The position numbers were made by a program, and so were the translations under genes. 64,000 bases of DNA from Hericium rajendrae (lineage: Eukaryota; Basidiomycota; Agaricomycetes; Russulales; Hericiaceae), in assembly GCA_033439255.1 (NCBI GenBank), contig CM065878.1, positions 2,728,001 to 2,792,000 of the forward strand. The letters run 5' to 3'. The notes below the pieces were generated by a model that searched no databases, had not been told where the DNA came from, and saw nothing but the letters and a program-made list of their open reading frames with translations. Positions 990-58,009 of the stretch are shown piece by piece. Numbering within the stretch: the stretch's first letter is position 1; every line of letters starts with the position of its first letter.

Positions 990-1021
990 GAGAGTCTCGC
1001 TCGTTATCGAGCGAGACTCTC
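990..1021. repeat. Perfect hairpin 1, left arm
   Basis: Two 14-base arms, GAGAGTCTCGCTCG and its exact reverse complement, flank a TTAT loop. Its counterpart in the right arm (4,767-4,794) differs at two stem positions, and in both copies the pairing partner has changed as well. Confidence 0.85.
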
Positions 1022-3560: not shown

Positions 3561-3689
3561 AAACCAGAATGACCAAGTCAAAATCTGTTATATTAAAGTC
3601 TACACTATTACAAGTAAGCTAAGCTAAAGTAAAGGAAGGCAGGTGTACAATAAGAATGTCATACACGGAGTGCGTGAGTCATTGAGCAC

Positions 3690-4170
3690 GCGTGCGGGGT
3701 ATTCTACACGCGTGCGGCGTGTCAAACGTACGTACGGGTCGTCGAACGTGCGTACGGGTCGTCGAACGTGCGCGCGGGTCGTCGGACGTGCGCGCGGGTC
3801 GTCGGAGTGCGCGCGGGTCGTCGGGCGTGCGCTCGGGTCGTTGGGCGTGCGCGCAGGTCGTTGGGCGCGTACGCCGGTCGTCGACACGCAGGCGGGGTCG
3901 GGCACGCAGGCGGGGTCGGGCACGCAGGCGGGTGGTCGAACAGGTGGGCGGAGTGTCGAGCACGCGTGCGGCACGTCGAGCACGCGTGCGGCACGTCGAG
4001 CACGCGTGCGGCACGTCGAGCACGCGTGCGGCACGTCGAGCTCGCGTGCGGCACGTCGAGCCCGCGTGCGGCACGTCGAGCTCGCGTGTCGGTCGTCGAG
4101 CGCGCGTGCCGGTCGTCGAACGGGCGTGCCGGTCGTCGAACGCGCGTGCCGGTTGTCCTGCACGCGCGGG
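3690..4170. repeat. Tandem array of about 24 GC-rich 20-bp units
   Basis: The unit is close to GTCGAGCACGCGTGCGGCAC, with regular 20-bp spacing. It drifts from CGTACGGGTCGTCGAACGTG at the left end to the GTCGAGC form in the middle (about 3,955-4,080, nearly identical copies) and to a GGTCGTCGAACGCGCGTGCC form at the right. Many units contain ACGCGT. Because 20 is not a multiple of three and the units lack stops, all frames stay open on both strands, so the long ORFs here are not evidence of protein coding. There are no unique spacers, so it is not a CRISPR array. Confidence 0.85.
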
Positions 4171-4443
4171 GGTTGTCATGCACGCCGTAGCGCACGCATG
4201 CGGGACATCGCGGCGAGTGCGCGGGGCGTTGAGCGGGGCACGCGAGACATGCGCGCGTAGGGGGCGTTGCGGGCGACCGCGGCGTTGAGCGCGAAACCAG
4301 GCGTCGCGAGCGGACCCGTATGGCCGTGGCGCGCGAGCGCGAGTCGCTAAACCCATATGCGAGGCGTGAGCGGTGAGTCGGGGCTTCGCGGGGCGTGGGG
4401 TCAGCGCATGAGGACGTGTGCGATGGGCGCGAACAACGTACCA

Positions 4444-6903: not shown

Positions 6904-7489
6904 GGTTGGGATAGAGAAAGGACATGGAGGACGGGGAGTTTATATAGGGCAGGATGGACTGACCCAATGTGGATGGATGGGTGTCACGCAGGAGACGCGT
7001 AACATCACGTGACTGAAGATGACAGGGAAGTGGAGCTCCGAGCTGTATCTGAGAGATGACAGTTTCGTGTTGAGAATCAAAAAAAACAGTGAACGAGGCA
7101 TGTTGTAGGCACGGGGGGAGGTAAACATGCACAAATCCTACAACTCAAGGACCAAACTTGAATTCCATTGCAGACAGTAGGTGCGGAGCAGTATGAATAC
7201 AAACATGTACAAACCCCAGGACTCGGGGGCAAAAGGTACATTACAGCATGTATTCAGGGGACAAGGGCAAGATGCAGACAGTGTGGATATGAGCCAACAA
7301 GCACCAAGCAAAAGAGGCAAAGGCATTGACAAGAGACAGGAATCCGGAGGCCAACATGCACGAGAAAGATGGCAAGTTTTGTTGAAGAGGACTGGGATAC
7401 AGAAAGGCATGGACAAGAGATGAGAATCCGGAGGATGACACGCACGACAAAGACAGCGATAGTTTGGACAAAGAGAACTGGGTCAAAGG

Positions 7490-10652: not shown

Positions 10653-10881
10653 GCGGGCGGTCCATGATGGTGGGAGGAAAGAAGGAGGACAGTATGGGGG
10701 TGATGGTGAGAGGAGAGAAGAAATACGGTGGGGAGAGCCATTGGAGGAAGACACACTTGGGGTGCAGTGGGGGGCGGGCAGCTGGGGAGAGCCCCAGCAA
10801 CGAGGCGGGAGGCGGGATGACATCATGCGGAAATGAACAGGGCGGGAAAGTATGCGCCGGCGGGTCGTGGGAAAGTAAGCA

Positions 10882-10931
10882 CCTTTTTTGGCGCGGCCCG
10901 GGCGTTCCGCCCCCGGCCGCGCCAAAAAAGG
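10882..10931. repeat. GC-rich hairpin with 17-bp perfect arms
   Basis: CCTTTTTTGGCGCGGCC and its exact reverse complement flank a 16-base GC-rich spacer that is itself partly self-complementary. It lies between the 5' end of the DUF3435 gene and LSM1 and may mark the element end. Each arm contains TTTTGGCGCG, which also matches an E2F-type site; that reading is only a possibility. It is not a bacterial-type terminator despite the shape. Confidence 0.7.
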
Positions 10932-11135
10932 CGCCAAATCACTCGCCTTAACGACTCGGCCATATCAGCTTGTTTAGTTTTTGCATACCAAAATACTACA
11001 ATAAGCTCTCGTCTTGAGACTCGACCATATCAGATTTCACGAATCACTCTGCCCCGACTCGGACGCCGCAGCGGGCGCGTGCCGAAACTTGACCTTTCCA
11101 CTATCCGCCCGCCTGAGGGCAACCTCCCCAACACG

Positions 11136-20242: not shown

Positions 20243-21604
20243 TTAGACTGTCACGAACGCGCTGGCGTAGCTGACGCTGGAATCCTTCACGGAATGGCAC
20301 TTGCTGCTCTGCTCGTATCTCACCCATTGCAAATGAGGTGCTCTGTGATCGTTGTTCTGCAGGGCAGTGAGGGCGCCGAGAAGGACACCGATCGGATGCC
20401 GTCCGCAAATGGTGTTCTTCGTCCTCTGAAGGTACTCGGCAAAGAATGCGTGGGCTTCACAGGCGGTTGATGGTGGGAGTGTGAGCAGCTCCATGGCTTC
20501 GTGGTCAGGGCTGAGATCGACTCGTATATGGGGAATTTGGACAATGTTGGGGGAGGTGACGTCGTGCGTCCAAGCCGTACTGGGTTGGAGGAACACGATT
20601 CGGGATAGTAAAAGGTATATGAGAATCGCGTTCCCCTGAATCAATTTATTTAGAATGGGAAGATGACTGAGATCATGCACACTAACCAATGGCAAAAATC
20701 ACTGGAAATGACAAAGAACGTGTCATCCTGAGCCAGATACGGGGCGAGGAGTTTTCCAAATTTCTCTTCCTTCTCTTTACCTATTGCGCCCACGAGGATG
20801 GGAACGATGGAAATGTCGTGTCTGTGTACTCCGGTCACATACAGCAAATAGTTCGTGGATCCACCGGACTTACCCTTCGAAGACTTTGCGAATATACGGA
20901 AGATGCATCTCGATGCTATGCTCATCCTCGTCAGTGTCGATTTCCATGTCGCTGAACTTTCCTGTAGCTCTCAACTCAGCTACAGCTGTATCATACCTTA
21001 AAGTCAGATGTGCTTCGTTGTATATAACCGCGACCAGGACGTACTTCCGACCTCTATCGGTAGATTGCCGATGGGCGTTTCGTACTCCGTGCACTTGGTA
21101 AGCGCACATCCGTCCAGATACACATGATGTGAAGGACCGAGGACGAAGACCCGCTTGCTATGCAGGCCATCGTTCATGAGGCCTGAAGTCAGACAGTAAA
21201 CGGGACACTCACATGCCGTCCGTCTTGATGCTCTTGTATGCCCAGGCAGCAGTAGGCCCGGAGTATGAGTATCCCGCATGCCTATTTGCGAGGTAAGCCT
21301 AAACTTTTATGAACAGAAACTAAGGGATTGCTGACGGGGCTATGATGGCTTTTGATCCCTTCACTGGAAGGTCGTACTTATCCTTGGGACCGGGCTTTAC
21401 GGCAGCCAGCCAAGCAGATAATTCGGCATTTAGTTGATCGGCTGCGAGAGAGTCCTTGGATAAATCACAAGCAATGACGCATGGCACACGCCAGGCGCAC
21501 CGTTGCTTGTATACCAAGAACCGGCATGGGTAGCTCGTCTGAAGAAGTAGCAGTCGTGAGCAGCTCACTGGGGACGAGGGCAGCGACCCTTACCTGATAG
21601 CCAT
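20243..21604 (-). CDS. MHO1: MEMO1-family protein
   Basis: Exon 1 is only MAIR (start at 21,604) and is followed by [31 protein letters not shown] and [25 protein letters not shown], then [88 protein letters not shown] and the C-terminal pattern [15 protein letters not shown] with YEQSSKC and [13 protein letters not shown]. Every join is in frame using standard GT..AG borders. Memo proteins resemble extradiol dioxygenases; the conserved [21 protein letters not shown] and SSDFCHW blocks hold the metal-site residues. Yeast Mho1 and animal MEMO1 have redox and iron-linked roles. About 540 bases separate its start from the stop of RPL32 upstream. Confidence 0.92.
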
Positions 21605-22141
21605 CGGGGCAATACGGAAGGGAGATTGCGAAGTAGCTGAAGTTTGGGAAGTGGGAAGAGGTTCGCAATGGGTGGACGTGGAGTGAAGTGTAAAGAGGAA
21701 GCAAGTACTTGTAGATGAAAGAAGATGATACTGTGCGAGGGCGCTGTTGACCATAGAATAGCACCGAGAAGTATTTATCGGGTCAGACTACAAGCGCCAA
21801 GAAGAAAATGACGTCGATTGGTTTACAGTACAGTAAAATGCAACACCAAGCCTCTCGAGCCGGGCAGTGACGGACCTGGTCGTCCCGCAAGACGTGATAA
21901 CGAACGGAAAAGTGCTCATAGAGTCGAGTTGAAGCACACAAACATCGGGCATGCGGTCCAAAAAGATGAACTTCGTCTGATGCAAATCCCATTTCTGACA
22001 AACGCACGTTTGGGCTGTGCCAGATGAAGTCATGTAGTGTCATTGACATGCAGCATACTTGCTTGGCGGTGCTCTCGAGCATATGCAGAGGGAAGAGAAT
22101 ACATGGATAGCGATAGATGAAAGGACAAGGAAACAACCACT

Positions 22142-23180: not shown

Positions 23181-23244
23181 GAAGTAGCAGTCGTGAGCAG
23201 CTCACTGGGGACGAGGGCAGCGACCCTTACCTGATAGCCATCGG
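23181..23244. repeat. 64-bp exact copy of the MEMO gene start
   Basis: Positions 23,181-23,244 repeat 21,544-21,607 without a mismatch, in the same orientation. The copied piece covers the MEMO start codon, its tiny first exon, all of intron 1 up to its acceptor and the first base of exon 2. The flanks on both sides are unrelated. The surrounding 23,045-23,395 has no other recognised feature. Confidence 0.85.
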
Positions 23245-23395
23245 CGCAGCGGAATTGCTCAAGATTCTTATCCTCGGAGATGGGTTGAAGTCCGGACAGC
23301 CAGCCTGACACGGGCCAGGGATCACCTGGCGCTGGTTTGCCAAATCACTGCTTTGCGCGTGAGAGCATATCCTCCGCTCGCGTCGCGTCATTATA

Positions 23396-24152
23396 GCTGT
23401 TTGCAAAAGTGTTGGCGCGACGCGCGCCGCGTCGAAAGTGTCCACACGCGGCCCGTTGAGAGAAATTCTTGTATAGCCAGAACCACGTAGCGTAGACACA
23501 TAAAAACAACGGATTCGTGATCAGAGATTTATTTTAGTTCTCCTGAGACTCTTTTCGGAACGTTTGGACTCCACAATGAATTTCGGGCCTTGGAGAGGAA
23601 AATGTGGCATATCTCGAGGAATAAAATAGCTATTGGCAAACGGCAACCGCGACATGTTGACTGACATCTTCATCTACCATCTTATGAGGTTTCGCGATTT
23701 TAGAAGGCTTCCGTGTTGTGTTATGGGTCGGGATATGCAAACCCGGCCCATTACAGTGAAGCGCCCGCGGCGTCATTGCCATTTTGGGAATGCAAACTTT
23801 GGGTGGTCTTGCAACATAAGCTCACTGTGACACCACCAGGCCTCCTAAAATCACGAAATCTCGCAAGATGGTATATGCGGATCTCAGTCAACGTATCGCT
23901 GTTGCCGTTTGTCAATAGCTATTTTATTCCTCGAGATATGCCACATTTTCCTCTCCAGGGCCCGAAATTCATTGTGGAGTCCAAACGTTCCGAAAAGAGT
24001 CTCAGGAGAACTAAAATAAATCTCTGATCACGAATCCGTTGTTTTTATGTGTCTACGCTACGTGGTTCTGGCTATACAAGAATTTCTCTCAACGGGCCGC
24101 GTGTGGACACTTTCGACGCGGCGCGCGTCGCGCCAACACTTTTGCAAACAGC
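23396..24152. mobile_element. Foldback (MITE-like) element with ~320-bp inverted repeats
   Basis: The left end GCTGTTTGCAAAAGTGTTGG is matched in reverse complement at the right end. The arms (about 23,396-23,725 and 24,152-23,835) are nearly identical in the outer 240 bases and about 85% alike further in, around a loop of about 110 bases. No ORF of note. Possible target duplications are unclear; the flanks read TTATA and AATAA. Such structures are usual for non-autonomous DNA transposons moved by another element's transposase. It lies directly upstream of the N-terminally shortened kinase gene. Confidence 0.85.
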
Positions 24153-24155
24153 AAT

Positions 24156-26350
24156 AAACTGCGAGGGAACTGCTGCCATAGTCATGTCGCAGGAGAGCAG
24201 GCCTACATAATAGGTTGCACGCAGTCGGGTAGAGGCGACGCACGTGGACGATATATTGAGCGTGAGAACAGCGGGGCACCGCTGGCGCTGGTCTCAGATT
24301 CTTCAGTTGAAAGTTGAGACCTGTGTGTCGTTGTGGTCCCACAATCCGGTTACAGTCTATTTTTTCCCTCAACTGAATTCTTCACCTTTTTTCCTGTATT
24401 TTTAAATGCTTGCAGAGCCTGCTGTCGACATCACTTTCGACGACGATGACTGGGTGGCGCCGCCTGCCAGTAGACCGAAGCTAGAGAGACCCGCCGGCAT
24501 TGGGAATAGTTGGAGGGTCACGTCCATTGGTCGAGGATTCGACTGGTCTGGGAAGGGTGACGAGGCAGATGCAGAGGAGGACGATACCACGGCATCCGAG
24601 ACTGAACAGGTATGGGGCGAGCAGACTTTCATCGGCGATGGCGTACCGCGGTCGCCCGCTTTCACTGCGGAACCCATTTCCCCCACGACCATTTCGGGTC
24701 CTGCCCCGAGTTATCCCTTAACGACAGTCATTCCTCCAACCCCGTCATCCATCGCGATATCCAGATATTCAAAATTCACCACCGAGCCTCTGTCAATCTC
24801 GCCTGTCCATTCGCCTTCTATCTCGACGCGACCTACTACACCATCGTCCGGCTACTTTCCGGACCAACGACCATCACTCCCATCGCGCTCTCCGAGCTCG
24901 TCACGTCCACGGCGACGATCTTCGCAGCAACGTGTCTCTCTGATTGCAGGCCGTGTTTCCGTCGCTCACATCGAACCCCCTTCGCCGCCTCCCGTGGCGC
25001 CTCAGAAGCTAATCCGGTCTGGCAGCACCGCCAGCTTGCTGAGCGCTGCTGCTAGCACTGGTGTACCAATACCTGCAGCGTCCGTCGTTGGCGAGTCGGG
25101 AAATGAGCGTAGCATATCTGAGTTCATCATTCAGGGCGAATTGGGTAGAGGCGCTTATGGTTTGGTGAAGAAGGCCAGGGAGACATTGCCGGATGGATCC
25201 TTGGGGGTGAGGCAGTTCAGTCTGCGAAAACTTTTGAGTCAGTTTGATAAACTTCCCAACAGCCTCCTTTGGTTATCAAGCAGGTCATCAAGTCTCGCAT
25301 CTTAGCGGATTGCTGGAAGAAGCACCCTAAGTATGGCACAATTCCCATTGAAATCTATGTCATGTCAGCCATCTCCAATACCTCATACGTGCTTCCTCCA
25401 CCCCGGCCTTGGGATCCATCTCGCCTATCTAGAACAGACCCGACGCTTCCATGGGATCCCAGTTTTCACCCGCGTCAAACCCAGACGACTTCGAGTGGGT
25501 GGAGGGTAGGGTCGTCAGGGGCCATCCAAATATCTGTCCTCTCCTAGATTTTTTCGAAGATAACCACTACTACTACCTAATCCTGCCTTCAACTGTCCCG
25601 GAGCCGGCTCCAAACCAAACCATTCCACCCTCGGATCTTTTCGATCTCGTTGAGAGTTATCCAGACGGACTTCCCCCGAATTTGATACGCACACTCCTGG
25701 GTCAGATCGCAGACGCCCTCAGCTTCTTGCATTCGAAAGGGATAGGTAAGCCGTCCGCCGCCTGGTTAAAAAAGACATATTGCTGACATGGGCATAAATT
25801 CGTAGTACATCGTGACATCAAAGACGAGAACGTGGTACTGGGGCCTAAGGAAAGGTGCATCTTGATTGACTTCGGTAGCTCGGGTCTCGTAAAGAAGGGC
25901 GGATGGGACACGTTCAGCGGCACGTAAGTCATGATCCGGTTCATAATGAGATTTATGATCATCTCATATTTTCCCTACGCCAGTCTGGATTATGCAGGAC
26001 CAGAGATCTTACGGGGCGAGCGCTACCAGGGGAAAGAACAAGATGTCTGGGCGTTTGGAGTGGTGGCATATGTGATGCTTATCGGCGAATGCCCCTTCAC
26101 AACAGCTGCCGAAGCACAAGAAGGACTCGAATCACCATTTTCGAGCGCTTCTATCGCACTCGACGAGCGTTGCAGCGAAGGCCGAGAGCGAGATGGTGAA
26201 GAATCAGACGGTGGTGGAGCATTAGGTGATGCTGCAGCACTAGTCAGGGCTTGCCTTCAGCTCGACTTGACCGCTCGCCCTACCTTCGACCGAATCCTTC
26301 AATCTCGCTTCCTTGCGGGGGAAGGAGGATGGGGAATGGATAATCATTGA
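24156..26350 (+). CDS. PAS-kinase-type Ser/Thr protein kinase, N-terminal part missing
   Basis: A possible first exon runs up to about 24,312 (GAPLALVSDSSVE), joining at 24,416 to KPAVDITFDDDDWVAPPAS. Then comes a Ser/Pro-rich linker, then the kinase: IQGELGRGAYGLVKKARE (Gly loop), VIKQVIKSRIL (the ATP-site Lys), HPNICPLLDFFEDNHYYYLI, VHRDIKDENVVL (catalytic loop), LIDFGSSG, TLDYAGPEIL and KEQDVWAFGVVAYVMLIGEC, ending LTARPTFDRILQSRFL. Exons 25,263-25,388 and 25,433-25,745 join over a 44-base intron; others are 25,806-25,923 and 25,984-26,350. The kinase domain resembles PSK1/PSK2 and PASK, which couple nutrient sensing to glycogen and translation. PAS kinases carry a large sensory N-terminal half, which is absent: upstream coding stops at the foldback element ending at 24,152. 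No convincing start codon was found. Confidence 0.7.
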
Positions 26351-35714: not shown

Positions 35715-36542
35715 GGCGGTCCAAGTCAAGGACCATTCAACCGAATAAAACAGAGAAATACGTGAACAGCTGAAATGGAATCCTTCTTCTTCCGATCCGC
35801 GTCCGAATCTGACCACATCACATCCATTCTAGTCAACCCGACTACTTGTTTAGAGCACGGTCTTCTCGGTCATTCGGCACTCTTGGCAAAGTAGGTGATG
35901 GTATTTGTGTTGAATCCGCCGTCATGTAAATGTGCGCCTTTGTACGCAATGCATCCGTCCAGGCATTACTATAATGGCTAACATATTCAATCTGCTCGCG
36001 CATGCTGCATTGATCATTGAGAGACTGAAGTAGAAACACCAAGAACGGAATCGGCCAATTCGCCTGTGATGGCTTGCGACCACGTCAAGAAGGTGCACAC
36101 CATGCGAGGGGGTGTACACAATGCTGACCTACCTATATTCATTGCTACACGCCTGAAGACATGCATTGGATAAAATCGAGTGTCCTCGTCACCTACATAA
36201 GATAAATTGGATTGATTTTGACCTGATGTTTCCGAATTTGGTCTCAGGCTCGTGCTGTGTACGAGGCTGAATAACATTCGCGAGGGTCATGCATGGCGAG
36301 TTGAACGTTTACTTACGCGATTCATCCACCTGGAAACTGCAAATCGATATCCTTTTCACCGGCAAGATGAGTGATCAGATCTCACAAGAACTATCGATGA
36401 CATCGCCTGGGTCGGAAAGTGCAAAAGTTCTCCGCGCATCAGGAATTGATGAATTTATATCTTGATGCCAAATGCTTACCCAGCATTTACAAGCATGCTG
36501 CTAATGACTCGGCATGTAGGACGAGCATTCCTGATGCAGAAT
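35715..36542. other. Intergenic stretch without a recognised gene
   Basis: About 830 bases between the disordered-protein gene and the left edge of segment A. Short open frames occur on the minus strand but none shows a family pattern, a plausible exon structure or clear codon bias. Confidence 0.5.
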
Positions 36543-36692
36543 GATGCCAGTCGCTGAACCATCTCATCGCCTGGAAGCGGCGATGTGGATCGTGGTCCTG
36601 GGTGCTGTTATGGATCGGGTGGTGGAGGTACAGTAGTTGAGGGTCCACAGAACGGTCTGGATGTTCTGATCTTCCAGTCTAGGACGGCCTGG
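36543..36692 (-). pseudogene. NPL4 fragment (middle part) in segment A
   Basis: On the minus strand it reads GACTGGAAGATCAGAACATC then CACATCGCCGCTTCCAGG and ends at AGCGACTGGCATC, matching NPL4 48,171-48,312. It is joined directly to a Nudix gene fragment on its right. Too short to be functional. It proves the fused order inside A. Confidence 0.8.
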
Positions 36693-37035
36693 CGCACCTC
36701 TAGCGCCGTAGGACGGCGCGGATGCGCTCATATGGGTGCAGGCATTGGGCGAGGAAGGCGAGAATGAAGGCGGGCGCAAGCTGACACTCGGGGGCGCGGG
36801 CGACGCGCAGCCGTCGGGGACAGACGATCCTGGGAAGAAAGTCTACTCTGCCTCTGGGAGACTAATCAATGCACCTCCCAGCTTCAAGTCAGCGTGATTT
36901 TCCTCTCTGGATGTGAATGTCTGGATCTGGTGCGTGAAATCATTTCTGTAGTCTGATCTGTTTCGTTTGATTGTCATTTTCAGGATGTTTGGAAAGCGCT
37001 ATCATGAAGTCACCCGTGGATGGGAGGCTTCAAGC
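36693..37035 (+). pseudogene. Nudix gene 3' fragment in segment A
   Basis: It matches the end of the Nudix hydrolase gene (52,285 down to 51,978), for example GGCATTGGGCGAGGAAGGCG and GATGAAGTCACCCG-like sequence at about 36,995-37,025 (GGAAAGCGCTATCATGAAG). Several small insertions and deletions; no open frame across it. The catalytic Nudix box lies outside the copied part. Confidence 0.75.
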
Positions 37036-37644
37036 TACACAGTCGTATTACGCAGTAATTGCTGGATAGTACACTCAAACCGCCACCCGTCATCGTCAGC
37101 TGCGACTCTGATACACATTGTCATTGGTTAAAGCTAAATTGGAGACCCAGTGACGTCGTGCCTGCAGAGAGCCCAAGGAAATGTTCAAAATCTCAGTTCT
37201 TTCAAATTTATGCCGTGCCGCGCGTACGCGCGTAACGGCTGTTTCTTGATCGATCCGTGAAAACTGCCGTAGATCCATCTGGTAAAGTCGTAACAGCAGA
37301 CTAACTGTGATGTGCACCAAATGTGCCCTCGTCGATGCCCATTGCGCGCGGCTAATCAACATGGGTCGATTTACCGAGTCAACCCTGCTGACTTTCAGAC
37401 ACAGAGAAGCCGACGGCCATGCGCATTGTCAACCACTGATAGGAGACTTCCCATTTCGAGGTCACCCAGTCTGAGGTACGCAGGACATCCAGACTTCGAC
37501 GTTTGGACATGACCGATTTTCCCAGCTTCTCCTCATCGCAATGGCGGGATGTGAACGCGTGTCCACGTCTGACTCACCAACCAGTGGCCGAACGGTGTAA
37601 ACAAGAACTTGACAATGACCTGTTTCAGTCGATTGGGCCCGTCA

Positions 37645-37652
37645 TATAAATA
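37645..37652 (+). promoter_or_regulatory. TATA box of the reductase copy A
   Basis: GATTGGGCCCGTCATATAAATA lies about 90 bases before the ATG. The functional copy B has the same GATTGGGCCCG plus TATAAATA arrangement on its strand at 50,829-50,822, so the promoter was included in the duplication. Confidence 0.65.
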
Positions 37653-37740
37653 CGTCGTGGGTTGTTCGCTGATATTCAAGCAATCAGCGACAATCTCGAA
37701 AACAACCGTCCAAACTTTCTAAATCTTCTAAACTTTCGCA

Positions 37741-39356
37741 ATGGCTCAAGCTGCAAACCGCACCATGCCTTATGGTGAGATCATTCGAATACGGATACAT
37801 CTTGCAGCTGCTGATATTGCACACAGTTCGCCTCGGAAAGTCGGGACTCAAGGTCTCCAGGCTCATTTTGGGCTGCATGAGCTACGGCAGCCCTGTTTGG
37901 CAGGGCTGGGTCCTCGGCGAGGTCGAGGGAATTAAGCATATCAAGGCTGCGTAGGTTCTGATGGCTGCTCTTTGGCCTTTGACTCAAACCATTTCTCCTC
38001 AGTTATGATCTCGGTATCCAGACCTTTGACACGGCTAACGTCAGTCCTATGTTACCGTCAAAATCTGGATCGCTGAACCATTTACAACAGGTTTACTCCA
38101 ACGGTCTTTCCGAAGTGGTCCTCGGTAAAGCGATCAAGCAACACAATCTCCTCGCGATGAGATTGTCGTGATGACGAAGGTCGGTAACCTTCGTCTCTTC
38201 GAAGGGGTCGTATGGACGGTTATATATTTATGTAGTTGTTTGGAACCGTCTCAAGACAGATGGACCAGACAATGTTCGGTTCTGAAGGCGACAAACTCGG
38301 ATACGTCAATCAGCACGGTCTGAGCCGCAAGCATATCTTCGAGTCCGTGAAGCACAGCCTAGAACGCCTTCAGCTGGACTATATCGATGTTCTCCAGTGT
38401 GCGTCTGGCTAAATCGCTTATTTTAGGCTCGCGACTAAACTGCTCGTAGGCCACCGATTTGATCCGGACACGCCCATTGAAGAGACGGTAAGAACAGAAT
38501 TACCGCAGCGTGCACCGGAACTCACTGTGGTTTTAGATGCAAGCCCTCCACGATGTAGTTAAAGCAGGCTACGTTCGCTACATTGGGATGAGTTCCTGCT
38601 ATGCTTGGCAATGTACGTGTCTTCCATCCTCTGGCCAGCTTTATATTGACCTTTCCCCTTGCAGTCCACGTTATGCAGAGTGAGCCATTTTACTCGACCA
38701 TAGTTGCAAGCCGCTGACAGTCACTTGACCCCTGCAGACTATGCGATCAACAATAATCTCACGCCGTTCATCTCAATGCAGAACCACTACAACCTCCTGT
38801 ACCGTGAGGAGGAGCGCGAGATGATGCCGACTCTTGAAGTGATTGTCTTTTTCTCCCGCGCAACGGATCTGAACTAACTGTCTCCAGCACTTCGGCGTGG
38901 GCTCCATCCCGTGGTCCCCTTTGGCACGTGGTCAACTCACTCGCCCATTCGGCCAGGATTCGGCGAGGAGCGGCACTGACCCGTACGAACGAGACCTTAT
39001 CCATTCATGTTCTATCCTCACCTTTTCCCTCAGATTTATAAGTATCTACGGCGCTGGTGCCGTACAGAAGGCCATCATTGACCGGTAAGTTATTTATCAT
39101 GAACACTGCGTTCCTGTGCATGTCTGATGATCCGTGTCACAGCGTCGAGGAGCTCGCCAAGAAGAAGGGCGTGACCATGCCCCAGCTCTCGCTTGCGTGG
39201 ATGCTGCACAAGGACGTCGTTTCCGCGCCCATCATCGGCACGACCTCCGTCGAGAAACTGCATGGCCTGATTGGTGCTCTCGACATCAAGCTCTCGAAGG
39301 AGGAGATCAAGTATCTCGAGGAGGCCTACGAGTCCCGCACTGTCCTCGGTCATTGA
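37741..39356 (+). pseudogene. Aldo-keto reductase, copy A (frame broken)
   Basis: Same exon plan as the gene at 49,078-50,751: MAQAANRTMPYG, then VRLGKSGLKVSRLILGCMSY, YDLGIQTFDTAN, VYSNGLSEVVLGKAIKQHNL, GYVNQHGLSRKHIFESVKHS, LERLQLDYIDVLQ, ALHDVVKAGYVRYIGMSSCY, FISMQNHYNLLYREEEREMM and VEELAKKKGVTMPQLSLAWM. The Asp, Tyr, Lys and His of the reductase active site are all recognisable. Near 38,150 one C is missing relative to copy B (AATCTCCTCGCG against AACCTCCCTCGCG), so the frame runs into stops after KQHN. This could be a true loss of function or an assembly error. Copy A ends YESRTVLGH, whereas B has a longer tail. Confidence 0.75.
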
Positions 39357-39579
39357 GAGGTTTCCCATGGTCGATTTTAGTCTGATCATTTGTATTTTCT
39401 GGATATACTGTTGGTATCGCCAATAACAGCATGGCATGATTATGCACTCCTTGATCTGCGAGTGAATCTTACACAGAAGATGGTCATAGCCAGTCCTCGG
39501 AGCATACTTGTAGCTTCATGTGAACATCTCGAATGGCTAATCTCGATCGACCGAACAACACTACACGAGAATATAAGCT

Positions 39580-39889
39580 GGTGTGCGGTTATTTCAGTTC
39601 TACAGGCCTTACGACCTGGTCTCCACACCTCAAATACAACGGGAGGCCACAGACTTCGCAGTCAGTCCCACTGCCCGTGTTCTCGAATGTACAATGAGGG
39701 CACATGCGGATACCTGTGGCGATCAGCGGGTCGAGCATTGTCGGATTGTCAAGGCTTGGTGCCGAGACAACTCGCGCGAGGACTTTCATGTCGTCCTGCA
39801 GAAGTGATATGCACAAGTTAAACACGAAGATAACTGTACTAATACCTACTCTCACTACCGAGAAGTGTCTTGATGTTCGATCAGATGCC
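39580..39889 (-). pseudogene. NPL4 3' fragment in segment A
   Basis: The minus strand reads DDMKVLARVVSAPSLDNPTM, LDPLIAT and then directly GIRMCPHCTFENTGSGTDCE with VCGLPL. The intact gene has about 90 more residues between the two parts. The in-frame deletion keeps the RanBP2-type zinc finger. The upstream splice acceptor (CACTTCTGCAG) is kept. It is in the clean frame at the place where the full NPL4 gene (about 48,443) has one extra base. Confidence 0.8.
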
Positions 39890-46493: not shown

Positions 46494-48786
46494 ATGACGA
46501 TGGTAAGTTTCCAAGTTATAGTCTTATGCAATGCTAACAATTATCGATCTAAAGCTGGTACGAGTTAGATCAAGAGACGGTAATTTTCGGTTCGAATTGG
46601 AACCCAAAACAGACATTTCTGTCCTCGCATCCAAGGTATGGGCCATTGTGAAAGGCCAGAATAGGTCCTGAATATTCGCAGATGTTAGAAACGACCGTCG
46701 ATGCGGACCCATCTACTCTCACGATATCCAATCAGCCCCGAGGCAACGAGGTGCTAGTCTCGACACTCAAAGGCAGAAACCTGCAGAACCTGGGGCTTCG
46801 GTATGTTATCCACCTTGTCTCACCTCTTGTATTCTGATTCAGTGTCTAGTCATGGCGATCTCATTTTCGTCTCATATCAGCAACGTCCATCTACAAGCAC
46901 TACTCAAGAACAACCTGCTATCGTTCCAGAGAGCACGCGCTCAGTCGTGGTAGCTCCCAGCAAGCCATGGGACAGCGCGGTCGAGGATGCTGTTGATCAA
47001 TACTGGCGCACAAAGGACGGGAAGATTCCGCGAGGCAGAGACCCCAATTTCTGTAAACATGGCCCGAACGGCATGTGTGACCACTGCATGCCTCTCGAGC
47101 CATACGAGGCCTCGTATCACCAAGAACACAACATCAAGCACTTGTCATACCACGCATATCTCCGTAAACTTCTGCCAAAGACTTCATCCACAGCGGCTGC
47201 TTCTCTTCCGCCGTTGACGGTGCCGGATTACAGGGTAAAAGTGCCTTGTCCCACAGGCAGCCACCCCCCTTGGCCGACAGGAATCTGTACAGCGTGCCAG
47301 CCATCTGCGATCACTCTGCAGAGCCAACCATTCAGGATGGTGGACCATCTGGAGATTGCTTCCATGGAGGTTGTCGACCGTTTCTTGCAAGCTTGGAGAG
47401 TAACTGGTCTGCAGCGATTCGGTTGGCTCATTGGCCGATACGAACCCTACGACAAAGTCCCAATGGGTGTCAAAGCCGTCGTGGAAGCAATCCACGAACC
47501 TTCACAGGAGGGTGAGCTTGATGGTCTGTCGCTCGGCCTTCCATGGGAGGACGAGCCACGCATCAAGGAGCTTGCGAGCAACTTGACCGCGCCTCTCACC
47601 ATCGTCGGATACGTCTTCACCGACCTTGATCCAACGCCTGAAGACCGGACCAAAAACGTGTACAAACGCCATGCCAATTCATTCTTCCTGTCCTCGCTCG
47701 AGGTCATTTTCGCTGCCCATATGCAGATCGCTCACCCGACGCCCTCAAAGTCATCACCTACTGGAACCTTCTCTTCGCGCCTGGTTACTGCAGTCCTTAC
47801 CGGAACTGCAGACGGCGCAGTCGATATTTCAGCGTATCAGGTGTCACAACAAGCGGAGTCCATGGTACAAGCAGACATGATCGAGGCCAGCGTCGATCCT
47901 GGTATCATGCGGGTCAAGGAAGAGAACAGAGGTGAGGACGGCGACGCAACTAGATATGTGCCAGACGTATTCTTCCGATACCGGAATGAGTATAATCTTG
48001 AAGTCAAGAAAAGCGCAAAGCCTGCGTTCCCAGTAGAGTATCTACTCGTCAACGTAGGTATAATCCGATACTCGAAATGTATTCGCTCTGACAACAGTCC
48101 TCCAGGTCACGCATGGCTTCCCGCAGAACCCATCTCCTCTGTTCAAATCGAGCAACTTCCCCATCGAGAACCGTCCTGGACTGGAAGATCAGAACATCCA
48201 GGCTGTTCTGCGGAACCCTCAACGACCTCCACGCACCTGAGATTCAGCACAGTAGTCAAGATCACGATACTCATCGCCGCTTCCAGGTGATGAAATGGCT
48301 TAGCGACTGGCATCTGATCACATTTTTGGGGACTTCCGGTCTATTCTCGCCGGTGAGAGCAGGCGCGAATGCAGTTGTTCTCGCGTTTGCTTATGCATAT
48401 GACTTCTGCAGGACGACATGAAAGTACTCGCGCGAGTTGCCTCAGGCACCGAGCCTTGACGATCCGACAGTACTCGACCCGCTGATCGCCACAGACGGGT
48501 GGCAGACATTGATGACGTTCGCGCGCGAACATGCTCGTAAGTTGCTCTTCTCATTGATTTATAAATGCATCTGACAGGATATGGACAGCGCCTCCACGGC
48601 CCGAACTGCCAGCTCCTGGCGCCGCGCATCGTATGGATGAAGACATCCCGTCTGAGCTTTTCGACCAAGCAGCGGAAGCCGGCTGGCGATGGGGGCGGCG
48701 GCGGTATCCGCATATGCCCTCATTGTACATTCGAGAACACGGGCAGTGGGACTGACTGTGAAGTCTGCGGCCTCCCGTTGAATTGA
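46494..48786 (+). CDS. NPL4: Npl4, Cdc48/p97 ubiquitin adaptor
   Basis: Exon 1 is MTM only (46,494-46,502). Next LVRVRSRDGNFRFELEPKTD (ubiquitin-like domain), then exon 4 (46,850-48,053) with GRDPNFCKHGPNGMCDHCMP (zinc finger), VPCPTGSHPPWPTGICTACQ (second Cys cluster), FLQAWRVTGLQRFGWLIGRY and MGVKAVVEAIHEPSQEGELD (MPN-like NPL4 domain). The tail has MKWLSDWHLITFLGTSGLFS, DDMKVLARV, LDDPTVLDPLIATDGWQTLM and a RanBP2-type finger, ICPHCTFENTGSGTDCEVCG. Npl4 with Ufd1 brings ubiquitinated substrates to Cdc48. Two places need a frame change: 48,205-48,247, where a 43-base GT..AG intron would also solve it, and near 48,443 (TCAGGCACC), where copy A has one base fewer and stays open. Confidence 0.93.
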
Positions 48787-51700
48787 AGAAATGGAGACTT
48801 GGTCATAAAGGCTTGTAGAATGAAATCCGAAGCAAAAGATAGAAGTTGTGTAATTGTATAAGGTGATCTCAAGGATGGAGCGTTGTGATCCCTAAGCTAT
48901 CTTAAAGAATTGCATGCATGCTTATTTTCCTCGTACAGTCTTTGGATGACTGATATTGACTATCCCAGATGTTTAGATAAAGCTGCAGTTGCCCTTCAAA
49001 GGGGGGTCATGACCATCTTCTGTGTAACATCTAGAAGACCAAGAATGTGTAGTCATGCCACGCTGCTATTGGCGTTATCAATAGTACATCCAGCAAATAC
49101 AAATGGTCGGATTAATATCGACTACGGGAAAGCGCTCAGTGACCGATGATGGAGCGGACTCGTAGGCCTCCTCGAGAGACTTGATCTCATCCTCCGAGAG
49201 CTTGATGTCGAGAGCACCAACAAGGCCATGCAGCTTCTCGATGGAGGTCGTGCCGATGATGGGGGCGGAAACGACGTCCTTGTGCAGCATCCACGCAAGC
49301 GAGAGCTGGGCCATGGTCACGCCCTTCTTCTTGGCGAGCTCCTCAACGCTGTGACGCGCGATCATCAGACATGGGCGGGAATGCAGTGTTCATGACAACT
49401 TACCGGTCGACGATGGCCTTCTGTACAGCACCGGTGCCGTAGATGCTTGCCCAGCTGAGGGGAGCGTGAGCGCAGAGCTTGAATGGATAAAGTCTCGTAC
49501 GTACGCATCGGTGCCGGTCCTCAGTGTATCCTCACCGAATGGGCGAGTGAGTTGACCACGGGCCAAGGGAGACCATGGAATGGAGCCCACGCCGAAGTGC
49601 TGGAGACATTTAGTTCAGATCCGTTGCGCGGAGGAAAAGACAATCACCTTGAGGGTCGGCATCATCTCGCGCTCCTCTTCACGGTACAGGAGGTTGTAGT
49701 GATTCTGCATGGAGATGAACGGCGTGAGATTGTTGTTGATCGCGTAGTCTGTGGGGATCGAGCGACTGTCAGCGGCTTGCAGCAGTGGTCAAATAAAGGG
49801 ACTCACTCTGCATAACGTGGACTGCAAGGGGGGAACGTCAATTATTAAACCAACGGGCCAGAGAAAGGAAGACACGTACATTGCCAAGCGTAGCAGGAGC
49901 TCATCCCAATATAGCGAACGTAGCCTGCCTTAACTACATCATGGAGGGCTTGCATCTAAAATCATAATGAGTTCCGGTGCACGCCGTGGTAGTTCTGACC
50001 TTACCGTCTCTTCAATGGGCGTGTCCGGATCAAATCGGTGGCCTATGAGCGGTTCAATCGCGAGCAAAAAAGAGCGATTTAGCCAGACGCACACTGGAAG
50101 ACATCGATATAGTCCAGCTGAAGGCGTTCCAGGCTGTGCTTAACGGACTCGAAGATATGCTTGCGGCTCAGACCGTGCTGATTGACATATCCGAGTTTGT
50201 CGACGTCAACACCGAACATTGGCTGGTCCATCTGCCTTGAGACAGCTCCATATAGCTACATAAAAATATACCAGTCAGTACGACCTCCTCGAAGAGACGA
50301 GGATCACTGACCTTCGTCATCACGACAATCTCATCGCGAGGGAGGTTGTGTTGCTTGATCGCTTTACCAAGGACCACTTCGGAAAGGCCATTGGAGTAAA
50401 CCTGTTTTAAAGGATTCAGTCATGCAGATTTTGAGGGGATTGTAGGACTGACGTTAGCCGTGTCAAAGGTCTGGATGCCGAGATCATAACTGAGGAGAAA
50501 CGGCTTGAGTCAAAGACCAAAGAGCAGCCATCAGAACCTACGCGGCCTTGATATGCTTGATTCCCTCCTCCTCGCCGAGGACCCAGCCCTGCCATTCAGG
50601 GCTGCCGTAGCTCATGCAGCCCAGAATGAGCCTGGAAACCTTGAGCCCCGACTTTCCGAGGCGAACTGTGTGCAACGTTAGCAGCTACAAGATGTATCCG
50701 TAGTCGAACGATCTCACCATAAGACATGGTGCGATTTGCAGCTTGAGCCATTGCGAAAGGTTAGAAAGTTGTTTTCAAGGTTGTCGACGATCGCGTAAAT
50801 GTCAACGAAGCACCCACGAGGTATTTATACTCGGGCCCAATCGATGAAGACGGCTCATTATTTTCTTATTCACTGTCCAATCGTTGCAAGATTGCTGACT
50901 CGGATGTGGACGCGTGTTCACATCGTTCACATTCCGCCATTGCAATGAGAAGAAGCTGGGCAAATCAGTCATCTCGAATATCGGAGCCTAGACGTCCTGC
51001 GTACCTCAATCAGTGGCCTCGAAATGGGAAGCCTCGAATATCGGTAAGTGGTGGTCGACGCGCACTGTCTGAAGTCAGCAGGTTGACTAGGACTCCGGGC
51101 GCCGGGCCATATTGATTAGCCGCGCACAATGGGCATCGAGGAGGGCACATTTGGTTGCACATCACTTTTATTTAGTCTGTGAGGGTTTACCAGGTGGATC
51201 TGCAGCAGTATCCACGGACGGCCACAAGACAACCAAGAAACGGTCATTCGCTAGTACGCGTACGTACGCGCGTTTACGCGGTACGGCATAACTTGAAAAG
51301 GAAGTTTTGAAAATTCTTGTGGGCTCTGACCATTGATAATCTGTATCAGATTGTCAGCTGAAGATGATGACGGGGCGGTTTGGACGTACTATCTAGAGAT
51401 TACTGCGTACAGTGAGATCACAAATATCCCAGCCATGAAATCACCAACTCGGAGTTCACCGGTCACCGACAGCGCAAGTCATTAAAAATAGATAGTGCTG
51501 TTCCTTGGCTGCTCCAGAGAAAAAAGAGTGCGATATGGTATGTTATGTTATAAACGTAGACCGATTGATACTTCGTATCAATGGGCCTAGTTCGGTAACG
51601 GTCGTAAAGTAGTCTATGTGCAAACTGCTACACGGTAGCAACACATATTACAGATGTCCATTGGGAACTTCAAACCTGAATTAGGGCCGTACAGTTGTGG

Positions 51701-52285
51701 ATCCAGTTTTCGCGTGTAGTACTGTCCCTCTCGCTCCATTACGTGCAAGTTGCGAAACCACTCATCGAAGCAGCCACCAGATCACGAACGTCACGCCTGC
51801 AAGGAGACCGATGGCCCGCAAGACAAGAACGACGACGAGGGCCTTGCGTACGGCTGCGTAGAACGTCGTCAAGGCAGCACCTGTCCAATTTATTCTGCGA
51901 ACCAAAACATTCGTCAGATATGTCATAGCCAGCCAGCGCAGCAGACTGACCGCCTGTCATTTGTCCCATTCGCGCGTACAGAAGCTTCCCATCCACGAAT
52001 GACTTCACGATAGCGCTTTCCGAACACCCTGAAAGTCATGGATCAATGCGCAGAACCGGTCTACAGAAAGAATTCCACACACCAGATCCAGAAGTTCACA
52101 TCCGGATACGAAAACCTTGGGAACACGCTGGTCAAGCTAGGAGGTGCATTGATCCTACCCTTCTTCCCGCGCCCCCGACGGCCACGGCGCGTCAGCTTGC
52201 GCCCGCCTTCATGCTCGCTTTCCTCGCCAATGCCTGTGACACCCATGAGCGCGTCCGCATCCCATGGCGTAAGAGGTGCGCCAGG
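48171..52285. repeat. Segment B: source of the circularly permuted copy A
   Basis: This segment contains the 3' part of NPL4, the whole aldo-keto reductase gene with its promoter and the 3' part of the Nudix gene. The complete host genes cross both its borders, so B is the original place and A (36,543-39,889) the derived copy. The inferred circle is about 4.1 kb. Confidence 0.8.
49078..50751 (-). CDS. Aldo-keto reductase (intact copy)
   Basis: About 13 exons. The first encodes MAQAANRTMSYG (start 50,751), followed by VRLGKSGLKVSRLILGCMSY, GSPEWQGWVLGEEEGIKHIK, YDLGIQTFDTAN, VYSNGLSEVVLGKAIKQHNL, PRDEIVVMTK, MDQPMFGVDVDKLGYVNQHG, LERLQLDYIDVFQCHRFDPD, GMSSCYAWQ, FISMQNHYNLLYREEEREMM, HFGVGSIPWSPLARGQLTRP, IYGTGAVQKAIVDR and SLAWMLHKDVVSAPIIGTTS. 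Asp (FDTAN), Tyr (VYSNG), Lys (VVMTK) and His (MQNHY) form the AKR tetrad, and PIIGTTS belongs to the NADPH-binding end. It resembles aryl-alcohol dehydrogenase-type fungal AKRs with broad aldehyde substrates. The exon border GC|GTACGT..CCTCAG at about 49,505-49,455 restores the frame. TATAAATA lies about 75 bases upstream. Every join is in frame, unlike copy A. Confidence 0.87.
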
Positions 52286-53381
52286 GGCAGGTGCCATATA
52301 CGCCAGCAGGTCTAGCGTCATGCCGAGTGACAGGCCCCATAATTTGAGCACCTGTGATGACGCATAAGGTGGGCGCGCGCTGAACGTGCCGTTCTCGACT
52401 TCCAGCGATCCGCGGGGCTTCTCGTCTGTGTATGCGTCATGGATCTTAGTCTTAGAAACAATGAGAGCCGGGAACTGCATGTTTCCGACAAGGACACGCA
52501 TGAGCAGGCGCAATGCGGTGGAGTGCCGTGGGGCCAGGCGTGATGCTGTATCTACGGTCACCGTAGACCAGATAGGTTGGACAACGGGTTCAGCACCGAG
52601 ACCAGACAGTGTGGATGAAATGGACGACGGGAACGGAAGGAGAGATGCGAGAGGAATCCAGTGCAGGGTGGTCTCGGGTGCAGGATCCGTCGGTGCTTCG
52701 ACAGGCGTTAATTGAAGAAATACTATGAAAATTCCGTCAGTTGCCTGCGTATATGCGCGACCATTCCCAATTTCGTACCATAAGGAGACAGAATCATAAG
52801 CAACCGCTTGCCCAGCGAAGTGGTGATTTCACGATCGTCCAATTGGCCGACACATGTATAGTCTTTTTCAGCCAAATCGAGACCGATTTCTTCCCAAGTC
52901 TGCCGCATCGCTATACCGAAAGACAAAGATAAGAATATTTCTCAAAAATAAAAACGTACAAGATAAGACATACCCGTATATAGAGAACCCTCATCCCCTT
53001 CCTCCATACGTCCACCCGGGAATGCAACATGTGTGTCCCCAGTGCGTGCATCGTCACCTTCAGCTTTTGTGCGAAGGAGAAAGAGTATCTCTGGGCGAGC
53101 GGCTGGGTGCTTAACCCAGTCTAACTCGAAGAACTCGGAAAGAGATGGCGGGGTCGAAGAAACTGGTGGTAATTTGACATTCGGCGGGGGTACGACACGA
53201 AGAATGAGAGATACCGCAGCACGTCGAGGTTCTGAAGAGATACAGTGCAGTCAAAATCATGATAGCAAGCAGCTTGGGTAACTTTCAGCTCTGAGTGACA
53301 CATACGCGTTGGCGGCGAGGCAATAATCCTTGGGGGTGTTGAGCGTATTCGGTGCAACGCGCGCGAAAGCAGGCCAGTCAT
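51762..53381 (-). CDS. Nudix hydrolase (CoA-diphosphatase-like) with C-terminal membrane helix
   Basis: The start MTGLLSRALHRIRSTPPRII (53,381) is followed by AAVSLILRVVPPPNVKLPPV, LSEFFELDWVKHPAARPEIL, FLLRTKAEG, TGDTHVAFPGGRMEEGDEGS, then AMRQTWEEIGLDLAEKDYTC, VGQLDDREITTSLGKRLLMI, LHWIPLASLLPFPSSIS and a long C-terminal part. VAFPGGxxExGDxxxxxTAxR followed by TWEEIG is the CoA-pyrophosphatase form of the Nudix box. The usual E of RExxEE is Q here (AMRQTWEE). The last exon encodes ALVVVLVLRAIGLLAGVTFV then IWWLLR, a probable tail anchor. Six exons, all in frame. The copy in segment A has only the 3' part. Confidence 0.82.
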
Positions 53382-56644: not shown

Positions 56645-58009
56645 ATGCGTTCTTCAACTAGGACTGCTGCCGCCGTCACTGCGGCGATTTTCATCGCGAC
56701 GCATATGACATCGTCTCTCGCAATGCCAATCCGACCGTGAGTCATCTGAACATTAGCATGTTGGTATGTTTTCGCTGATCGGAACGATCCCCAGAGCACC
56801 GTCGGCGTTATCTTATCTGGGTCAAATGGGGACAGATGCTGCCAACCCTGCTCCAACAGCACTATCCAGTGTCAGCCATTTGCGCAGACAGGCGACCGAT
56901 TCTGCTGACCCTTCTACCACTGCTTCATCGTATGTTCTCAATCACAGCATCACTGAATTTGGGAGTCATTAAAACACTCATACAACAGTGACTTCGACAG
57001 TGCCTCGGACTCGGCTTCTGCAGACCCAACCGACGACTCCGGTTCAGCGTCGTCAGCAGGTTCTGCTGACGACCCGGACCCCACCGACACGACCGCGGAC
57101 GGCGGGTCCACTGACGCAGGCGGTGATGATGGACCGTCCCCTACAGACACCGACAGCGGATCTGCCCCCAGTCCTACGGATGCCTCATTTTCCGGCGGCA
57201 TCATTTCTGGGCCTCTCCCCACTCCCTCCGTCCCTGCTACTGGCACGAATGGTGCCGGTGGCTCGACCCCCTCGGGAGTACCCTGTCAGCATGGCTTCTT
57301 CCCCAACTTAAAGGGCCTCTGTCCTGATAGCCGGGGAAACTACCCCAATGCCAAAGGCCAGTATCCCGACGATCGTGGGAACTATCCCAACAGCAACGGG
57401 CAGTATCCTGACGAGCACGGGAACTACGCAGGCGGCTGCTCTGCGCAGGGCGGTGGCGGCGGCTCTGGTGACTCCACAGATGGCGGTGTTTCCCCCAGCG
57501 CTACTGGTTCAGCTATGCCGCCCATGGGCACCGACGACCCGACCGATCCCAGCGGTACAGATTCAGCCCCGGGAACGGTAGCCACCCCCTCCCCAGACGC
57601 TTCTGGTGGCGATGGCGGTGACGACGGTGACGGCGGCGATGGCGGCGACGGTGGCGACGGCGGTGACGGTGCTTCTACAGCGACGCCGACAGACGCGTCT
57701 GCTGCCACCGACACTGACGCGGCCGCGGCACCGACGGACACCCCAGACCCTTCGGACGGCGGTGATGCCACTGATAGCGTTTCGGACGCGACACCGACGG
57801 ATGCTCCTGATGCCAGCGGCACTGATTCGGCCGTAGCACCGACGAACACTCCAGATGATCCCACAGACGGCGGCGATGCTACTGACAGTGTATCGGACGC
57901 AACACCGACAGACACTCCAGATGACCCTACGGACGGCGGCGATGCCACTGACAGTGCATCAGACGCAACGCCGACGGACGCCTCTGACGCTTCGGCATCG
58001 GCATCATGA
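56645..58009 (+). CDS. Secreted acidic repeat protein (Asp/Thr/Ser/Gly-rich)
   Basis: Three exons (56,645-56,736; 56,795-56,929; 56,989-58,009) give 415 residues in one clean frame. The N-terminal MRSSTRTAAAVTAAIFIATH then MTSSLA is a signal peptide. After an RR site (LRRQATDSAD) comes a low-complexity acidic chain with three parts: Asp/Ser/Thr-rich; a short Cys-bracketed module with GNYPN-x-x-GQYPD repeats (NYPNAKGQYPDDRGNYPNSN, CQHGFFP at the front and GGC behind); and a long tail with GDGGDGGDGG and at least four copies of a DGGDATDSVSDATPTD-type repeat. No GPI signal is seen at the C-terminus, which ends SDASASAS. Very low pI and many Thr/Ser suggest a cell-wall or extracellular polymer that binds cations; this is inference. 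No known family recognised. Confidence 0.8.

What the first reader, a model, noticed from the sequence alone, without database searches (positions are those of the whole stretch)
36543..39889. Circularly permuted inverted gene copy: trace of a reintegrated DNA circle
Segment A is an inverted copy of B (48,171-52,285), but its order is rotated. In B the order is NPL4 middle, NPL4 tail, reductase, Nudix tail. In A, read on the minus strand, it is NPL4 tail, reductase, Nudix tail, then NPL4 middle. The two outer ends of B are fused inside A near 36,692 (GTGCGCCAGG joined to CCGTCCTAGACTGG). Both outer ends of A map to one point in B, GGCATC at 48,308-48,313, and GATGCC is present at both ends of A. 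Excision as a circle of about 4.1 kb, opening inside NPL4 and insertion about 10 kb away in inverted orientation explains all of this in one step. Comparable circle-mediated translocations are known (the cattle KIT colour-sided alleles); I know of none described at base level in a mushroom.
Basis: partly seen in the sequence, partly recalled or inferred. Interest (0 to 1): 0.88.

Follow-up and report, generated by a model that had tools for sequence, protein, structure and literature searches.

The report
Gene copy carrying a circle's scar
A fungal gene was copied to a spot about 8 kb away in a rotated order that fits a DNA circle which closed, opened at another point and rejoined the chromosome; the route is known from cattle, yeast and human genomes, and here the copied gene seems to have stayed useful.

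Summary
Segment A (36,543-39,889) is an inverted copy of B (48,171-52,285) with its order rotated: minus-strand A reads NPL4 tail, aldo/keto reductase, Nudix tail, then the NPL4 stretch that should come first. B's outer ends are joined base to base inside A at 36,687|36,688, and both ends of A map to one hexamer of B, GGCATC at 48,309-48,314. This is the A-B/C-D to B-A/D-C flip published as the mark of duplication through a DNA circle. A 4,115-bp circle, blunt-joined and opened at a 6-bp sequence, is the best explanation (0.75). Template switching without a free circle is the main rival. No relative with an empty site was available, so the insertion step is inferred. I add that the circle carried a complete reductase gene: copy A keeps 12 exons and 11 GT-AG introns with one 1-base deletion, and dN/dS between the copies is 0.144, too low for a copy neutral since birth (0 of 300 simulations at each of two settings). 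It was probably a working duplicate for most of its history; an internal control on dead NPL4 pieces points the same way but is not significant. New member of a known kind; interesting, not startling.

The parts
36543..39889 (-). Segment A: inverted, circularly permuted copy of B (3,347 bp)
36543..36687 (-). Rotated piece of A: NPL4 stretch of B 48171-48314 placed after the Nudix tail
   Evidence: E 5e-30; 119 of 139 aligned bases alike; score 142, best of 200 shuffles 35
36687..36688 (-). Circle-closing join: B 52285 joined to B 48171, no microhomology or filler visible today
   Evidence: sequences
36543..36548 (+). GATGCC, one end of A (opening point of the circle)
39884..39889 (+). GATGCC, other end of A (same opening point)
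37741..39356 (+). Reductase copy in A: 12 exons, 11 GT-AG introns, one 1-base deletion in exon 4 near 38152; past it the frame ends ...ESRTVLGH*
36688..37031 (-). Nudix tail fragment in A
   Evidence: (250 of 291 aligned bases alike, 67 gap columns)
39591..39889 (-). NPL4 tail fragment in A, with a 209-base deletion relative to B
48171..52285 (+). Segment B: donor unit, 4,115 bp
46803..48783 (+). NPL4 gene at B (end read by eye); holds the first outer end of B
48309..48314 (+). GGCATC, the single point of B to which both ends of A map
49078..50751 (-). Aldo/keto reductase at B, 12 exons, 364 aa as read
52064..53250 (-). Nudix gene (approximate bounds, read by eye); holds the second outer end of B at 52285

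Best explanation
A 4,115-bp stretch running from inside NPL4 to inside the Nudix gene was copied into a DNA circle by blunt joining of its two outer ends (shown: the join; inferred: the circle). The circle opened at one point, GGCATC in NPL4, and went into the chromosome about 8 kb away in inverted orientation (shown: both ends at that hexamer; inferred: either 6-bp microhomology with the target or a 6-base micro-duplication of the opened circle). The donor stayed intact, so the circle came from a sister chromatid, another nucleus or a replication by-product (inferred). The circle held the whole reductase gene with its upstream region, so a complete gene was moved. That copy stayed under purifying selection for most of its history, while the NPL4 and Nudix fragments beside it are dead pieces (inferred from their being fragments).
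For: Rotated order and base-exact join. Both ends of A at one hexamer of B; two independent ends would fall within 6 bp in about 13/4115 = 0.3% of cases. A 6-bp overlap at a random join has a chance of about 0.0013 for even base use. The rotated and main NPL4 pieces are equally diverged, 119 of 139 against 236 of 272 alike, p=0.76, as one event requires. Introns are kept, 11 of 11, which excludes an RNA route. The pattern is the published criterion. For gene survival: dN 0.040, dS 0.278, ratio 0.144 over 329 codons; with A neutral since birth the ratio never fell to 0.144, 0 of 300 runs at each of two settings, minimum 0.259.
Against: No empty site from a relative was available, so the target side is unknown. 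A and B lie within 10 kb, which suits template switching and is unexpected for a free circle, although only copies inside one window could have been noticed. Takahashi and Innan warn that pairs on one chromosome can arise by nested events. GGCATC/GATGCC is about twice as common in the window as even base use predicts (58 against 31), so its presence at both ends is somewhat less telling than 0.0013. The mafft alignment made the rotated NPL4 piece look more diverged (p=0.016); pairwise alignment removed this. The control on dead NPL4 pieces is weak: codon positions 1+2 differ at 15 of 200 sites against 28 of 658 in the reductase, p=0.09; the mafft alignment had given p=0.00025. Copy A of the reductase has one 1-base deletion. 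With this much divergence a 1-2 bp microhomology at the closing join could have been lost from view.
Confidence: 0.75

Rival explanations
1. Template switching at a stalled or broken fork (MMBIR/FoSTeS) without a free circle: the broken target copied B from GGCATC to 52,285, jumped back to 48,171, copied on to GGCATC and returned to the target.
For: A is inverted and near B, as local switching gives; the hexamer at both ends could be the same microhomology used to enter and leave. PMC7450558 says breakpoint features do not suffice to tell end joining from MMBIR/FoSTeS.
Against: Leaving the donor exactly where it was entered after a 4.1-kb back jump is not expected unless the template was itself circular or tandem; the back jump shows no microhomology.
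Confidence: 0.14
2. Tandem duplication of the unit at B first, then loss of one unit by recombination between the repeats as a circle that reinserted (the circle is still the vehicle).
For: Gives the same join 52,285|48,171 and explains why exactly one unit moved.
Against: Needs one more step and leaves no trace at B (one search shows only A and B in the window).
Confidence: 0.06
3. Two separate duplications that happened to land side by side.
For: None direct; only the mafft alignment gave unequal divergence (p=0.016).
Against: The second insertion would have to start exactly at the end of the first and end exactly at the point of B where the first began; equal divergence of the pieces under pairwise alignment (p=0.76). 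PMC7188851 makes the same argument.
Confidence: 0.02
4. Assembly artefact.
For: Four 1-base frame breaks lie in the gene exons compared here, dead fragments not counted (NPL4 near 48216 and 48443, reductase end of B near 49155, reductase of A near 38152); they may be base errors.
Against: A and B differ at 9 to 32% of aligned sites, by the part, so A is not a misplaced copy of B's reads; no N in the window.
Confidence: 0.03

Closest known systems
Circular-DNA-mediated segmental duplications in the human genome (PMC7450558, parts 1-3 of 4 read; PMC7188851, abstract and sections 6 and 8 read)
   Same: Block flip A-B/C-D to B-A/D-C, ends of the donor joined inside the copy, joins without long homology, donor kept, some complete genes carried along.
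   Different: Human pairs are about 20 kb to 3.9 Mb, 90 kb to 58 Mb apart or on other chromosomes, with 1-2 bp microhomologies or short indels; here 4.1 kb, 8 kb apart, inverted, a 6-bp hexamer at the ends and much more divergence.
Colour-sided cattle KIT alleles Cs29 and Cs6 (Durkin 2012, not read; seen as summarised in PMC7450558 and in PMC12235870, passages)
   Same: Duplication through a circle; a 2-bp microhomology at the closing join and micro-duplications at the opening are reported in PMC7450558.
   Different: 492 and 575 kb, between chromosomes 6 and 29, with a visible trait.
Region B of wine yeast, from Zygosaccharomyces bailii (PMC3053389, passages and section 7 read)
   Same: A fungal case: circularly permuted insertions, 2-3 bp shared at four junctions, attributed to end joining of a circle.
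   Different: 17-kb foreign DNA with a replication origin that works, and several insertions; here a host segment, one insertion seen, origin not tested.

Membership tests
Duplication through a DNA circle | Block order flips from A-B/C-D to B-A/D-C | tested here: met
Duplication through a DNA circle | Outer ends of the donor joined inside the copy | tested here: met
   36,687|36,688 = B 48,171|52,285
Duplication through a DNA circle | Ends of the copy adjoin in the donor | tested here: met
   both at GGCATC 48,309-48,314
Duplication through a DNA circle | Only microhomology or short indels at breakpoints | tested here: inconclusive
   0 bp at the closing join and a 6-bp hexamer at the opening fit, but the target side before insertion is unknown
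Duplication through a DNA circle | Relative with an empty target site | not testable with these tools
   no genome held; one viral-contig scan with a reductase piece found no relative
Duplication through a DNA circle | Free circle observed | not testable with these tools
   needs circle sequencing of the organism
Retrocopy | Introns lost | tested here: not met
   11 of 11 introns kept in A
Helitron gene capture | 5' TC and 3' CTRR ends, insertion between A and T (recalled) | tested here: not met
   both ends are GATGCC on the + strand; read by eye; Rep/Hel genes were not searched for
Simple inverted duplication | Order of the donor kept | tested here: not met

The most novel reading that the evidence does not exclude
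In mushroom-type genomes small DNA circles cut in the flanking genes can carry complete genes with their promoters to new places, where they persist as working paralogs; this is one such gene, still or recently functional, and more would be found by scanning for rotated duplicates.
Probability: 0.45. Interest if true: 0.62.

Novelty: new member of a known kind. Interest (0 to 1): 0.5.

Why it matters
If true it gives a base-resolved example in a fungus of a gene duplicate born from a circle, with a copy that stayed under selection. It would tie the circles seen in fungal cells (for example Magnaporthe, PMC9694575, two passages read) to lasting gene duplication, and it gives a simple signature, rotated order with both ends at one donor point, that can be scanned for in fungal genomes.

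Tried and rejected
Collinear inverted copy: rejected by the order of the BLAST blocks. Retrocopy: rejected, introns kept. Dead pseudogene since birth: rejected by dN/dS and simulation, with the caveat that the NPL4 control is only suggestive. Different ages for the two NPL4 pieces: suggested by a poor mafft alignment (p=0.016), gone with pairwise alignment (p=0.76). Search for a relative: one viral-contig scan with a reductase piece, 6 pattern matches, none confirmed; the window's own genome is not held; genome contigs (bacteria and archaea) was not scanned. Literature: nine searches, some with more papers than were listed (for example 10 of 240, 20 of 53, 15 of 32). No title or abstract start in those lists named a circle-borne gene duplication in a mushroom; this says only that these term sets in that open-licence library did not show one.

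Full report
OBSERVATION. Read on the minus strand, A runs B 48,344-48,494, 48,703-48,826, 49,009-51,218, 51,329-51,409, 51,981-52,285 and then goes back to 48,171-48,314. The last block is significant by itself (E 5e-30; score 142 against a maximum of 35 in 200 mononucleotide shuffles). The change of block is exact: 36,688 matches 52,285 and 36,687 matches 48,171 with no shared or extra base (sequences). Beyond these ends the flanks of A show no likeness to B by eye. The hexamer is not rare in the window: 58 occurrences over both strands against 31 expected from even base use, one of them at 36,464-36,469, just outside A.

GENES. B's left end lies inside NPL4 (PF05021 and PF05020; best solved relative 6chs, E 2.7e-120). 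The middle is a complete aldo/keto reductase on the minus strand (PF00248; best solved relative perakine reductase 3uyi, E 6.9e-49). The right end lies inside a Nudix gene (PF00293, E 3.7e-6, on a hand-spliced piece; the 166-aa ORF 52,064-52,561 alone gave no Pfam match). Splicing with anchors chosen by eye gives 12 exons and 11 GT-AG introns for the reductase in both copies.

AGE AND FATE OF THE COPY. Reductase exons are 91.0% identical, introns 84.1%, the 0.47 kb upstream 76.7%. Over 329 codons (of the first 330 of B's 364; one broken codon and the last 34 left out) dN is 0.040, dS 0.278, ratio 0.144; differences at codon positions 1, 2, 3 number 19, 9, 53. Simulations with A free of selection since birth and B constrained gave ratios of at least 0.259, 0 of 300 runs at or below 0.144 in each of two settings; with both copies constrained, 267 of 300 and 259 of 300 runs fell at or below it (mean simulated dS 0.32-0.33, a little above the observed 0.278). 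So A's reductase was under selection for most of its life. The NPL4 pieces in A, which cannot work as fragments, are the natural control: positions 1+2 differ at 15 of 200 sites and position 3 at 15 of 102, close to the ratio of one half expected when one copy is free, against 28 of 658 and 53 of 329 in the reductase. The contrast at positions 1+2 is in the right direction but not significant (p=0.09; the poorer mafft alignment gave p=0.00025). Copy A has one 1-base deletion in exon 4. B has its own frame breaks: two extra bases in NPL4 (near 48,216 and 48,443) where A keeps the frame, and one missing base near the reductase's end where A reads ...VLGH*. Since NPL4 is essential in yeast (recalled), base errors in the assembly are likely, and whether A works today is open.

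MECHANISM. The join inside A and the single opening point are explained by a circle closed by blunt end joining and opened once. If the ends of A were independent they would fall within 6 bp of each other in about 0.3% of cases, and a 6-bp overlap at a random join has a chance near 0.0013 for even base use. The two NPL4 pieces are equally diverged, 119 of 139 against 236 of 272 alike, p=0.76; the mafft alignment, which gapped the rotated piece badly, had given p=0.016. Chicote et al. (PMC7450558; parts 1-3 of 4) define this flip as the mark of a circle and report joins with microhomologies of 1-2 bp or short indels; they note that breakpoint features do not suffice to tell end joining from MMBIR. 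Takahashi and Innan (PMC7188851; abstract, sections 6 and 8) argue that two separate insertions are very unlikely, but caution about pairs on one chromosome. Galeote et al. (PMC3053389; passages and section 7) describe permuted insertions in wine yeast with 2-3 bp shared at four junctions, so a fungal case at base level is in print. The nearness of A and B is a point for template switching; it is weakened because a window-based reader can only see near pairs.

LATER CHANGES IN A. Relative to B, A lacks 209 bases in the NPL4 tail, about 80 in the spacer after it and, close together, 438 and 116 bases upstream of the reductase. These last two together span the stretch between two copies of GCGTACA in B, at 51,405-51,411 and 51,974-51,980 (by eye). 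The 209-base loss takes in an apparent intron with exon on both sides (by eye), so it is not an intron-exact loss.

VERDICT. It is a new member of a known kind. What I add is that a whole gene was carried and stayed under selection. Without an empty site the insertion step remains inferred.

Noticed in passing
window 23391-24157: A long inverted repeat: arms of 318 bases 95.3% alike around a 131-base spacer, outer ends TTATAGCTGTTTGC and GCAAACAGCAATAA; looks like a foldback or MITE-like element (label recalled); the one ORF of 100 aa or more that lies wholly within it has 104 aa.
   Followed up: partly
window 21544-21611 and 23181-23248: A 68-base direct repeat, 98.5% alike, 1.6 kb apart; the second copy ends about 140 bases before the inverted repeat.
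   Followed up: no
window 48216, 48443, 49155: One-base frame breaks in NPL4 and near the reductase's end at B, where A keeps the frame; all three lie inside the duplicated unit, while about 1.3 kb of NPL4 upstream is open. Possibly base errors in the repeat.
   Followed up: partly
window 3684-4204; 7319-7482; 57686-57990: Degenerate direct repeats of 69-76% identity.
   Followed up: no
window 990-1021; 10879-10934: Short palindromes, 93.8% and 84.2% self-complementary.
   Followed up: no
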